Shown piece by piece: positions 58,682-61,545 of a stretch of DNA of 64,000 nt. Positions within the stretch are counted from its first letter, which is position 1, and each line of letters starts with the position of its first letter. Source of the DNA: Niabella sp. (GTDB lineage: Bacteria; Bacteroidota; Bacteroidia; Chitinophagales; Chitinophagaceae). The position numbers and the translations under genes were made by a program. The DNA lies in contig JAGIAQ010000006.1 of NCBI GenBank assembly GCA_017744795.1, forward strand, positions 10,809 through 74,808, written 5' to 3'. Below the pieces are notes generated by a model. The model worked only from the letters and a program-made list of their open reading frames with translations, made no database searches and was not told the DNA's origin.

Positions 58682-59956
58682 ATGAAAATATTAGTTTTAG
58701 GAAGCGGCGGCAGGGAACACGCATTGGTGTGGAATATGAAAAACCGTGGCAATCATGAATTGTTTGTTGCGCCGGGCAATCCGGGAACGGCAACACTGGG
58801 CGTTAATGTTGCCCTGGGAATTAATGATTTTGAGGGAATCGGTGCCTTTTGCCGGCAAAACCAGATTGAAATGGTAGTGGTGGGCCCCGAAGAGCCCCTG
58901 GTAAGAGGCATCCGCGATTTCTTCAGAAACGACGCTGCTTTAAACGATATATTATTTATAGGGCCCTCGCAATTGGGTGCGCAGCTGGAAGGCAGTAAGG
59001 CATTTGCCAAGGCCTTTATGGAACGGAACCAGATCCCCACGGCTGCCTACCGGGAATTTACGGAGGCCAATTTTGAAGAAGGAAAAGCCTATATCGGCAA
59101 TCATGCGTTACCAGTAGTATTAAAGGCCGACGGATTAGCCGCCGGGAAAGGAGTGGTCATCTGCCAGACCAACGAAGAGGCCGTGGCCGAGTTTGAAGCC
59201 ATGATACAGGAGGCAAAATTTGGCGAGGCGAGCCGTAAGGTAGTGGTAGAGGAGTTCTTGTCGGGGATTGAAATGAGCGTTTTTATTGTTACGGATGGCA
59301 GCGAATATGTGTTGTTGCCCCAGGCAAAAGACTATAAACGGATAGGGGAGAAGGATAGTGGTTTGAATACCGGCGGCATGGGGGCGGTAAGCCCTGTTCC
59401 TTTTGCGGATGCTGCCTTTATGCAAAAAGTAACGGACCGGGTGATTCAACCTACCGTGGCTGGCTTGCATAAAGAGCAAATCGACTACACCGGCTTTGTG
59501 TTCATCGGACTGATAAAGGTAGGTGATGATCCTTTTGTGATCGAGTACAATTGTCGCATGGGGGATCCTGAGACGGAAGTGGTCATGCCGCGACTGAAAA
59601 CGGACTTAGCGGTTATTTGTAAAGCGGCTGCTGAAAACCGGCTTGCTGAAATTATGGTTGAAGAAGATTCGCGTACTGCTGTTACGGTGATGGCTGTAAG
59701 CGGCGGTTATCCCGGCGACTATGAAAAGGGGTTTAAGATTACCGGGCTGGATCAACCCATGGGGTCATCTGTTTTATTTCATGCCGGAACCAAAGCGCAG
59801 GAAGGGCAAATTGTTACGAATGGCGGAAGGGTGCTTTGCGTTACTTCTTTCGGGGAGGGCGTTGGTGATGCCGTGAATCAATCAAAAACGATTCTGGCGA
59901 ATATTCATTTTGATGATATGTATTACCGGAGAGATATCGGGTTCGAGTTTATGTAG
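58682..59956 (+). CDS. purD: Phosphoribosylamine-glycine ligase
   Basis: ATP-grasp enzyme of purine synthesis (step 2, glycinamide ribotide formation). 424 residues: N-terminal MKILVLGSGGREHALVW, KADGLAAGKGV (ATP loop, about 140-150), FIGLIKVGDDPFVIEYNCRMGDPETEVV (Mg-binding), C-terminal domain. The ATG 58682 is chosen because the family starts MKILVLGSGG. Single-gene unit. Confidence 0.96.
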   Translation: MKILVLGSGGREHALVWNMKNRGNHELFVAPGNPGTATLGVNVALGINDFEGIGAFCRQNQIEMVVVGPEEPLVRGIRDFFRNDAALNDILFIGPSQLGAQLEGSKAFAKAFMERNQIPTAAYREFTEANFEEGKAYIGNHALPVVLKADGLAAGKGVVICQTNEEAVAEFEAMIQEAKFGEASRKVVVEEFLSGIEMSVFIVTDGSEYVLLPQAKDYKRIGEKDSGLNTGGMGAVSPVPFADAAFMQKVTDRVIQPTVAGLHKEQIDYTGFVFIGLIKVGDDPFVIEYNCRMGDPETEVVMPRLKTDLAVICKAAAENRLAEIMVEEDSRTAVTVMAVSGGYPGDYEKGFKITGLDQPMGSSVLFHAGTKAQEGQIVTNGGRVLCVTSFGEGVGDAVNQSKTILANIHFDDMYYRRDIGFEFM

Positions 59957-60046: not shown

Positions 60047-60087
60047 AACCATGAAAATTGAAAATGTAATTTTTAATTTTCATGGTT
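60047..60087. repeat. 41-bp palindrome at the 3' side of the AAA ATPase gene
   Basis: Arms AACCATGAAAATT (60047-60059) and AATTTTCATGGTT (60075-60087), inner AAAAT/ATTTT. Its right end touches the stop codon of the ATPase gene. Near-copy at 61264-61306. Confidence 0.85.
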
Positions 60088-61253
60088 TATAATTTTGGTA
60101 GTTCCGCCATCAAAAAATGTTTTAGATTACAGCGAACGGTTCCGTTTGCAGCGGGATAAGCTTCTCCTGATGGAGCAATAATAAAACTTTTAGCTGGCTT
60201 CAAGGTATCGATTGATTCATAAAAGCCACGCGAGGGCTGCGCGCTGGTATTTACTTTTATTTCTATTGCGGCGTGAGGTTTGTTTTTCTTTACCAACAGC
60301 AGATCCAGTTCAGCGCCATTATGCGTTCTGTAAAAGAAGAGCGAGAGATGAGCCGGAGCCGCCTGTGCTATTTGCTCAACCACATAACCCTCCCAGGAGG
60401 CGCCGATAAGCACATTGCCACGCAGTTCCTCCATACTGTTAACCTGAGCCAGCCGGTGCAGCAGCCCGCTGTCGCGAATGTATATTTTGGGTGAACGCAC
60501 CAAACGTTTATTGATGTTTACAAACCAGGGTTGCAGGCTCCTGATGAGATAAGCACCCTCCAGGTAATCCAGGTAGCGTTGTACTGTTGGATTGGTGATG
60601 CCCAGGGCCCGTGCAAAATTGCCCGCATTGAGGATGCCGCCATTATTATAAGCCAGCATTTGCCAGAACCGGCGTATGATGAGCGGGTTTAAAGCCACGT
60701 GAAAGAATTGGTTCAGATCCCGTTCGATATAGCTTTTAATAAAATGATCCAACCATTCAATGCTTCCGGTATTCGTTTGCGCAGTCAGCGCTGCCGGAAA
60801 GCCGCCGCGGAACCAATGCTTTTGCAGGGAAATGCTTTTAGGCAGTTCCGTGAGTCCTATGGGCGGCAGTTCAGTATAGGCAATGCGCCCGGCCAATGAT
60901 TCGGATACGCCTTTGACCAATGACGGTGATGCCGAGCCGGTAAGCAGGTACCGGCCGGGTTTTCTTTTTTCATCAATCAGGGGACGAAGAATGCTGAAAA
61001 GTTCGGGCATGTACTGCACTTCATCCAGCACAACACATTTGTCGTTTTGAAATTCCAGGTACGCTTCCGCATCTGCCAGCTTTAGCTGGTCGGTAGGCCG
61101 CTCCAGGTCCAGGTAGACATTTTTTTTCCCCGACAGCTTTAGTACCTTTTTAGCCAAGGTGGTTTTCCCCACCTGCCTTGGTCCCAGGATGGCTACAGCA
61201 GGAAACTGTTTCAGCAATTTCAGGATGGCTGCCTCCAGTTTTCTTTGTATCAT
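60087..61253 (-). CDS. AAA ATPase with DUF4143 domain
   Basis: 388 residues. N-terminal AAA fold with Walker A GPRQVGKTTL (about residue 25), Walker B VLDEVQYMPELFSILRP, and the sensor LLTGSASPSLVKG; C-terminal DUF4143 nuclease-like domain (WEGYVVEQIAQ, RTHNGAELDLLL, AIEIKVNTSAQ: D/E-x n-E-x-K restriction-type residues). Function unknown; these genes occur in many copies in some Bacteroidota. It is framed by two almost identical 41-bp palindromes, one 11 bp upstream of the ATG, one at the stop. Confidence 0.9.
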   Translation of the reverse strand: MIQRKLEAAILKLLKQFPAVAILGPRQVGKTTLAKKVLKLSGKKNVYLDLERPTDQLKLADAEAYLEFQNDKCVVLDEVQYMPELFSILRPLIDEKRKPGRYLLTGSASPSLVKGVSESLAGRIAYTELPPIGLTELPKSISLQKHWFRGGFPAALTAQTNTGSIEWLDHFIKSYIERDLNQFFHVALNPLIIRRFWQMLAYNNGGILNAGNFARALGITNPTVQRYLDYLEGAYLIRSLQPWFVNINKRLVRSPKIYIRDSGLLHRLAQVNSMEELRGNVLIGASWEGYVVEQIAQAAPAHLSLFFYRTHNGAELDLLLVKKNKPHAAIEIKVNTSAQPSRGFYESIDTLKPAKSFIIAPSGEAYPAANGTVRCNLKHFLMAELPKL

Positions 61254-61263
61254 AATGTAAAGT

Positions 61264-61306
61264 TAACCATGAAATTTGAAAATTGTATTTTTAAATTTCA
61301 TGGTTA
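61264..61306. repeat. 43-bp palindrome at the 5' side of the AAA ATPase gene
   Basis: Arms TAACCATGAAATTT (61264-61277) and AAATTTCATGGTTA (61293-61306), inner AAAAT/ATTTT. Differs from 60047-60087 at only a few positions. Confidence 0.85.
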
Positions 61307-61338: not shown

Positions 61339-61545
61339 TTAGTCGGCCACATATTCCAGTAGGTCCCCCGGCTGACAATCCAGCGTCCGGCAAATAGATT
61401 CCAGCGTTTCAATGCGAATGGCTTTTGCTTTTCCGTTTTTCAGAATAGAAAGGTTGGATAGGGTAATGCCTACTTTTTCACTGAGCTCATTCAGCGACAT
61501 TTTGCGTCGCGCCATCATCACGTCCAGGTTTATAATAATCGGCAT
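61339..61545 (-). CDS. Small Xre/YozG-type helix-turn-helix regulator
   Basis: 68 residues, single Cro/C1-like HTH (RRKMSLNELSEKVGITLSNLSILKNGKAKAIRIETLESIC) ending with CQPGDLLEYV. Such small proteins often accompany DUF2975 membrane proteins. It is the last gene of the operon starting at 63097; a 34-residue ORF ends 5 bp before it. Confidence 0.9.
   Translation of the reverse strand: MPIIINLDVMMARRKMSLNELSEKVGITLSNLSILKNGKAKAIRIETLESICRTLDCQPGDLLEYVAD

What the first reader, a model, noticed from the sequence alone, without database searches (positions are those of the whole stretch)
60047..61306. AAA/DUF4143 ATPase gene framed by two nearly identical long palindromes
A 41-bp palindrome touches the stop and a 43-bp near-copy lies 11 bp upstream of the start. 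Both contain AACCATGAAA and its complement. The design looks like a self-contained cassette: the repeats could be recombination ends, operator/terminator pairs, or targets of the protein itself.
Basis: seen in the sequence. Interest (0 to 1): 0.62.

Follow-up and report, generated by a model that had tools for sequence, protein, structure and literature searches.

The report
Palindrome-framed single-gene ATPase-nuclease cassette
A widespread but uncharacterised bacterial gene, listed as a possible anti-virus defence gene, sits between two copies of a long DNA palindrome that change along with it, and sister species without the gene still carry one palindrome at the same spot.

Summary
In detail: the two palindromes (60047-60087, 61264-61306) are the strongest of the window and frame one minus-strand gene (STAND-like AAA_14 ATPase plus PD-(D/E)XK nuclease, DUF4143; PADLOC candidate PDC-S01). 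The layout recurs. Upstream palindromes occur in 43 of 87 related genes (1 of 702 control segments); they overlap the predicted promoter, whose -7 box would place transcription start at the ATG, so they look like operators. A second copy follows the stop in 20 of 86, all inside one subclade, and resembles that gene's own upstream copy although sequences differ between lineages. Among close relatives with other neighbours, the shared DNA ends near the outer edges of the palindromes. At the window's own site, three sister species have one solo palindrome where the window has palindrome-gene-palindrome; one solo joins the outer arms of the window's two copies. So palindrome-gene-palindrome behaves as a unit, gained or lost at the palindromes, which the protein probably recognises. 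Not shown: DNA binding, cutting, self-catalysed movement, direction of change (loss fits better). A new architecture of a known, uncharacterised gene family.

The parts
61264..61306 (.). upstream palindrome (U): 20-bp arms, 3-nt centre; proposed autoregulatory operator and cassette end
   Evidence: upstream palindrome in 43 of 87 clade genes against 1 of 702 controls
60047..60087 (.). downstream palindrome (D): 19-bp arms, 3-nt centre, overlapping the stop codon by one base; second copy of the site
   Evidence: matching second copies at other loci
60087..61253 (-). 388-aa protein: STAND-like AAA ATPase (AAA_14), winged-helix-like region, C-terminal PD-(D/E)XK nuclease-like domain (DUF4143); PDC-S01
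   Evidence: Pfam; PADLOC; structure models and fold matches; conserved Walker and nuclease residues
61258..61265 (-). TAACTTTA, one mismatch from the Bacteroidota -7 box TAnnTTTG, at -12 to -5 from the ATG
   Evidence: sequence; box at -11 to -13 in 34 of the 44 related genes that have it; published position -12 to -5 from the transcription start (passage)
58682..59956 (+). purD, neighbour on the downstream side; not part of the cassette, marks the orthologous site (name from the sequence, recalled)
61339..61545 (-). HTH_26 (Cro/C1-type) gene, neighbour on the upstream side; not part of the cassette; its like lies next to the solo palindrome in G008 and G012
   Evidence: Pfam

Best explanation
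The two palindromes are copies of one recognition site, most likely bound by the protein they frame. The upstream copy overlaps the promoter of a gene with little or no leader and acts as its autoregulatory operator; the downstream copy is a second site that in this subclade is inherited with the gene. Palindrome-gene-palindrome (about 1.26 kb) is a unit found in unrelated surroundings that can be lost precisely, leaving one palindrome, by recombination between the copies. The protein is a STAND-like ATPase switch with a nuclease; a host-defence or element-maintenance role is likely. Shown by comparison: the unit and its approximate boundaries, the solo sites, agreement of the two copies. Inferred: operator role, leaderless start, binding by the protein, route of loss. 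Unknown: nuclease target and whether the protein helps the unit move.
For: Palindromes real. Upstream palindrome in 43 of 87 clade genes vs 1 of 702 controls; upstream-downstream match above the 99th percentile of cross-locus matches in 18 of 86 (0.86 expected). Palindrome distance tracks protein distance (Mantel r 0.40, 0 of 2000 permutations, 57 genes), as common descent alone could also give. All 20 paired genes of the clade lie in one 41-row group with SH-aLRT 96; 8 label changes vs 18.1 shuffled. -7 box in 44 of 87 vs 78 of 4348 controls, 34 of the 44 at -11 to -13. Shared DNA of paired relatives without shared neighbours runs from -46..-72 to +37..+57 in 12 of 12 comparisons (8 genes). 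Same site: window and N. drilacis filled; G008, G012, G011 solo; G008's solo has the outer arms of the window's two copies. A distant paralog in the same genome (L009) has its own, different pair.
Against: 44 of 87 clade genes miss the strict upstream cut and 66 of 86 lack a matching downstream copy. Two of the 12 boundary comparisons involve G001, whose gene lies only one gene away from purD, so that may be the same old neighbourhood; the other 10 come from 5 genes and are not independent. These relatives share 73-80% protein identity, so no recent move is caught. Aminobacter plasmids with and without the gene differ by a replaced stretch. Segetibacter G791 lacks gene and palindromes, and its homology with G128 stops 41 nt before and resumes 163 nt after the unit, not at the palindromes. 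Solo palindromes stay conserved without the gene (41 of 41 between G218 and G250), so they may have another function. The window's own -7 box has one mismatch, and leaderless mRNAs are only 5.5% in F. psychrophilum. The winged helix of STAND proteins need not bind DNA (recalled).
Confidence: 0.57

Rival explanations
1. Regulation only: the upstream palindrome is an operator, the downstream one a terminator or second operator; the gene spreads by ordinary horizontal transfer and is lost by homologous recombination between 41-bp repeats. There is no element in any sense.
For: Promoter overlap; apart from L009, pairs are confined to one subclade while upstream palindromes are wider; loss between direct repeats needs no special enzyme; T runs beside 12 of 18 downstream palindromes on one strand or the other, both in the window; 6 of 7 solo palindromes lie between convergent gene ends, where a hairpin could serve as terminator.
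Against: A terminator need not copy the operator, yet 18 of 86 do far above chance and the pair is inherited across a deep clade. T run on the gene strand in only 6 of 18. Paired genes are not clearly enriched between convergent neighbours: 5 of 19 against 16 of 97 background pairs.
Confidence: 0.28
2. Self-mobilising element: the ATPase-nuclease acts on the palindromes to excise and insert its own gene at the palindrome centre.
For: Unit boundaries; G008's solo switches between the two copies somewhere between the differing bases of the arms; conserved nuclease motif; patchy distribution (23 of 39 genomes, own included, 0 to 10 matches in genus mates); plasmid carriage, 382 of 72,556 records.
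Against: No transposase or recombinase domain; the four DUF4143 genes of the window genome are different proteins, not copies; the palindrome has no free copies in the window genome; simple recombination explains the solos.
Confidence: 0.12
3. The palindromes are hairpins kept by mutation bias (template switching that perfects quasi-palindromes), without a binding protein.
For: Arms change together between Pedobacter orthologs, including a multi-base change on both arms.
Against: Does not explain the place over the promoter, the matching second copy on the far side of the gene, or the tie to this gene (1 of 702 controls).
Confidence: 0.03

Closest known systems
COG1373 / AAA_14-DUF4143 proteins, PADLOC PDC-S01 (phage-defence candidate)
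   Same: Same protein family: PADLOC models up to E 1.5e-88, Pfam PF13173 and PF13635.
   Different: PDC-S01 is described as an abundant single-gene candidate, validation pending for most such candidates (passages of PMC12988326). I saw no mention of palindromes, operator or cassette structure in the passages read. That COG1373 is this family is recalled.
STAND NTPases: archaeal 2qen and 2fna, Avs5, NLR and CED-4
   Same: Residues 1-270 superpose: Z 16.5 (rmsd 3.0, 246 aligned) and 16.4 (2.9, 248); Avs5 13.6 (4.6, 218).
   Different: Here the C-terminal domain is nuclease-like; no known trigger.
McrC and Can2/Card1 PD-(D/E)XK nucleases
   Same: C-terminal 134 residues: McrC Z 8.5 (rmsd 2.8, 107 aligned), Can2 7.8 (3.6, 130); E315, D317 invariant and E331, K333 nearly so.
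   Different: Fused to the ATPase in one chain; no cleavage shown.
Integron gene cassettes (attC), recalled
   Same: Single gene beside an imperfect palindrome; loss of the gene leaves one site.
   Different: No integrase gene among the window's immediate neighbours; the palindrome overlaps the gene's promoter and varies with the protein.
IS200/IS605 elements with hairpin ends, recalled
   Same: One gene between palindromic ends.
   Different: The protein is an AAA-nuclease, not a Y1 transposase.

Membership tests
DUF4143/AAA_14 (COG1373, PDC-S01) | AAA_14 plus DUF4143 domains above the family cut-offs | tested here: met
   PF13635 144.3 bits (cut-off 28.1), PF13173 96.1 (27); PDC-S01 models
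Anti-phage defence system | Protects against phage | not testable with these tools
   PDC-S01 is only a candidate; validation pending for most PDCs according to PMC12988326 passages
STAND NTPase | AAA core, helical lid and winged-helix arrangement as in 2fna/2qen | tested here: met
   Z 16.4-16.5 over residues 1-270; fold of a predicted model only
PD-(D/E)XK nuclease | Fold and E..D..ExK residues | tested here: met
   Z 8.5 to McrC (the top row, 2czr at 9.8, is not annotated as a nuclease there); residues in A1. Foldseek alone gave no match at E 0.001 or better. Activity not testable
Autoregulated operator | Palindrome over the gene's own promoter | tested here: met
   TAnnTTTG near the start in 44 of 87 genes, 34 of them at -11 to -13. 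Predicted promoter only; window box has one mismatch
Autoregulated operator | The encoded protein binds it | not testable with these tools
   Co-variation only
IS200/IS605 | Y1/HUH transposase | tested here: not met
   Only AAA_14, DUF4143 and AAA_22 found
Cut-and-paste transposon | Short target duplication outside the ends | tested here: inconclusive
   None is seen beyond the palindromes in window vs G008, but the intergenic DNA has diverged
Integron cassette | IntI-type tyrosine recombinase and attC consensus | not tested
   Considered from memory only

The most novel reading that the evidence does not exclude
A so far undescribed kind of mobile element in one of the most abundant unexplained gene families of prokaryotes: a single gene for a STAND-ATPase-nuclease that recognises its own lineage-specific 41-bp palindrome, uses it as operator, and moves or removes its gene at the palindrome centre.
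Probability: 0.14. Interest if true: 0.85.

Novelty: new variant of a known kind. Interest (0 to 1): 0.6.

Why it matters
PDC-S01 is reported as the fourth most common defence or candidate system across prokaryotes, and such candidates as unvalidated (PMC12988326, passages). A lineage-specific palindrome at the promoter, in one subclade at both ends, gives a concrete handle: a DNA ligand to test, a way to predict regulation, and natural filled and solo sites. It also raises the question whether these genes are defence systems, selfish cassettes, or both.

Tried and rejected
Insertion into terminators as a rule: 6 of 7 solo palindromes lie between convergent genes (not G218, where both neighbours point the same way), but paired genes are not clearly enriched there (5 of 19 against 16 of 97), so dropped. 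Downstream copy as a promoter for a neighbour: TAnnTTTG beside it in 3 of 22, dropped. Clean empty sites on plasmids: Aminobacter lacks the gene by replacement of about 1.4 kb with 262 bp. Dispersed MITE-like palindromes: only the two copies in the window genome; among 147 family genomes 5 had a match, 2 of them real by my judgement (G000, G009); among 298 order genomes 13 had a match, 9 judged real. Phages: 12 of 50,697 records, weak. NCBIfam gave nothing, PHROGs only weak matches (clamp loader, 8e-5), the sequence search of solved structures nothing convincing. Papers: searches for DUF4143 (1 paper), COG1373 (7), PDC-S01 (3), five terms with DUF4143 (0; 2 unrelated) and AAA_14 with palindrom (15, unrelated by title) listed none on palindromes of this family; I read only passages of PMC12988326, PMC13356809, PMC9723704 and PMC10782964 and section 7 of PMC4406477, the rest as listings. 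The library is open-access only.

Count caveats: the list of 20 paired genes was made by hand: 17 of the 18 over the 99th-percentile cut (L246 left out because its match lies far from the gene ends) plus L068, L245 and L059, which scored 27, 26 and 25, below the cut of 29. L009, outside the clade, is not in the 20. Arm identities cover 19 of the 20 (not L244). In one search L054 is labelled 'none' although it has a clear upstream palindrome (its start was placed downstream of the true one); its comparisons are not among the 12. In one search, 17 places matched with up to 3 mismatches; I judge 10 real and 7 chance by their unsymmetric middles (the reversed control pattern also matched in 5 genomes). 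The T-run count (4 of 22) measured from alignment ends; one search measured from the palindrome ends and is used instead. L042/L043, L044/G001:C126, L055/G128:C25, L054/G051:C89 and L051/G250:C273 are the same loci from two collections; identical proteins were counted once.

Full report
Observation. The palindromes at 60047-60087 and 61264-61306 are as described. The gene is on the minus strand, so 61264-61306 lies upstream (10 bp before the ATG) and 60047-60087 overlaps the last base of the stop codon. They are the two highest-scoring palindromes of the window, and 8 resampled windows hold none of score 11 or more. AACCATGAAA occurs four times, all here (0.36 expected). In the held assembly (4.57 Mb, 241 contigs, 90% complete) the 41-nt pattern occurs only at these two places.

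The protein. Pfam finds AAA_14 and DUF4143; PADLOC finds PDC-S01. An AlphaFold2 model from 35 sequences (mean pLDDT 91.8) matches archaeal ATPases 2qen and 2fna best over residues 1-270 (Z 16.5 and 16.4), then Avs5, NLR and CED-4 among others. The C-terminal 134 residues, modelled alone (pLDDT 83.0), match PD-(D/E)XK nucleases such as McrC (Z 8.5) and Can2/Card1 (7.8 and below); the top row, 2czr at Z 9.8, is a TBP-interacting protein, and Foldseek alone gave nothing at E 0.001 or better. Walker A and B residues and E315 and D317 are invariant, E331 and K333 nearly so, in 35 sequences. So the gene probably makes an intact ATPase-nuclease; no activity was tested.

Upstream palindrome. I collected 88 genes of the close clade (own HMM, 430 bits or more). 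An upstream palindrome of score 14 or more within 140 nt is present in 43 of 87 against 1 of 702 control segments of the same loci. Within 200 nt it is 45, of which 36 end within 20 nt of the start as I placed it. In 44 of 87 genes the Bacteroidota -7 box TAnnTTTG lies within 45 bp of the start (78 of 4348 control segments); in 34 of the 44 it begins at -11 to -13. A mapped Flavobacterium psychrophilum transcriptome places this box at -12 to -5 from the transcription start, and finds leaderless mRNAs to be only 5.5% (PMC9723704, passages). If the position holds here, transcription starts at the ATG and the palindrome lies over the -33 region, untranscribed: the layout of an operator. Upstream palindromes of score 10 or more, at or near the ATG, are also found in 7 of 14 plasmid homologs fetched, from Alphaproteobacteria, Runella, Spirosoma and Moraxella, so this part looks old.

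Downstream copy. In 18 of 86 genes the upstream and downstream regions of the same gene match better than 99% of cross-locus comparisons (0.86 expected). With three weaker cases and one removed (see caveats) I count 20 paired genes. On the tree they all fall in one 41-row group (SH-aLRT 96, quick tree without bootstrap); the label needs 8 changes against 18.1 for shuffled labels (0 of 500 as low). The palindrome sequence differs widely between lineages (AACCATGAAAATT, AACCCCGAAAATCC, ATCCTTGAAAATC, CATCATTGAAAATCC and others), yet the two copies of one gene agree (arm identity 0.88 or more in 13 of 19; lowest 0.50, L247). In L248 and L011 the small asymmetry between arms has the same orientation in both copies; in L057 it is reversed. 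A distant paralog in the window genome, L009, is framed by its own unrelated pair. Palindrome distance follows protein distance (r 0.40, 0 of 2000 permutations), which common descent alone could also give.

Unit boundaries. Among paired genes with at least 68% protein identity, 13 comparisons were made. One (window and N. drilacis) shares the purD side. In the other 12 (8 genes, 73-80% identity, not independent) the shared DNA runs from -46..-72 to +37..+57, near the outer edges of the palindromes, with no neighbour gene shared within the 1.5 kb or less held; L057 offers only 203 nt upstream. Two of the 12 set the purD-site genes against G001, whose gene lies one gene (sorbosone dehydrogenase) away from purD, so these may descend from one neighbourhood; the other 10 are among L049, L055, L056, L057 and L059. 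In genes with only an upstream palindrome (L053 and L066, 86% identical) the shared stretch runs from -62 to +5.

Filled, solo and empty sites. purD was found in 17 of 17 genus genomes. Directly after purD the window genome and N. drilacis (G015) have palindrome-gene-palindrome; G008 (purD 91% identical), G012 and G011 have one palindrome and no gene; in the others no palindrome of score 11 or more was found in the 1.5 kb held, apart from the start of the G001 one. The solo of G008 has the outer left arm of the window's left copy and the outer right arm of its right copy, whereas the window's inner arms differ by one base each. The window joined at the palindrome centre aligns through with G008: 39 of 41 palindrome positions agree, 36 of 41 for G012, and 38 of 41 for G011 against joined N. 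drilacis, while most of the intergenic flank is poorly conserved. A pattern search of the 17 genomes (up to 3 mismatches) gave 17 places, 10 of them real by my judgement: those above, two around the G001 gene (between a LytTR and a sorbosone dehydrogenase gene), and one solo in G009 next to the same LytTR gene. G002 has neither gene nor palindrome between those two genes. In the order-wide search three more palindromes without a DUF4143 gene in the stretch held lie in G218, G250 and G347. In Segetibacter, G128 and G790 are filled; G791 has neither gene nor palindromes, and its homology with G128 stops 41 nt before the upstream palindrome and resumes 163 nt after the downstream one, so this difference is not shown to be palindrome-to-palindrome. 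Because the filled copies are each symmetric at the position where G008's solo is asymmetric, loss from a filled state is the simpler reading, but direction is not proven.

What is not explained. Solo palindromes persist: G218 and G250 agree in 41 of 41 positions, while the 50 nt to the left agree in 35 and the 41 nt to the right in 36; their sister G239 has an ordinary terminator hairpin at that place. Six of the seven solos lie between convergent genes (not G218), and T runs lie beside 12 of 18 downstream palindromes on one strand or the other, on both in the window, so some copies may serve or have been kept as terminators. Several pairs of loci share neighbours on one side only, with the break at or near a palindrome.

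Context. Homologs are patchy (23 of 39 genomes, own included) and common on plasmids (382 of 72,556 records); in 7 of the 14 plasmid loci fetched a replication, partition or site-specific recombinase gene lies within about 2.5 kb. A COG1373 entry stands in a list of genes shared by horizontal transfer in gut bacteria (PMC10782964, passage). A Thermus thermophilus DUF4143 gene, TT_P0211, rises 6.6-fold when a plasmid is present in wild type (PMC4406477, section 7). PDC-S01 is reported as the fourth most common defence or candidate across prokaryotes (PMC12988326, passages).

Verdict. The cassette reading is largely right as to anatomy. The palindromes are best seen as the protein's own site: operator upstream, second copy downstream, and the points at which the unit is lost or gained. 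Self-catalysed mobility is possible, not shown.

Noticed in passing
L009 (window genome, contig C230): A distant DUF4143 paralog is framed by its own, different palindrome pair (TTTGGACA...).
   Followed up: partly
L208 and L209 (G250:C185, G218:C94): A solo palindrome is identical in two species in diverged intergenic DNA; a sister species (L236) has an ordinary terminator hairpin there.
   Followed up: partly
L284 vs L286; L011 vs L042; L054 vs L056: Gene neighbourhoods agree on one side of the unit only, and break at or near a palindrome, as if palindromes were rearrangement points.
   Followed up: partly
L053 and L063; L247 and L261: Two quite different DUF4143 genes (48-49% identity) with different upstream sites lie beside the same neighbour gene in different species.
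   Followed up: no
L063, upstream of the gene: Two palindromes in tandem before the start codon.
   Followed up: no
L214, L215, L216, L218, L221, L223, L227: Plasmid homologs with a replication, partition or site-specific recombinase gene within about 2.5 kb (7 of 14 plasmid loci fetched).
   Followed up: partly
L031, L033, L154; L168, L170, L171: Other DUF4143 subfamilies have other repeats before the gene (AATTCCGTCAGTATA; CAAATAGTATA).
   Followed up: no
L065:1501-2655: The Spirosoma spitsbergense homolog has an in-frame stop in the matched stretch.
   Followed up: no
G001 (Niabella MAG): Ten DUF4143 matches in one genome, against none in several genus mates.
   Followed up: no
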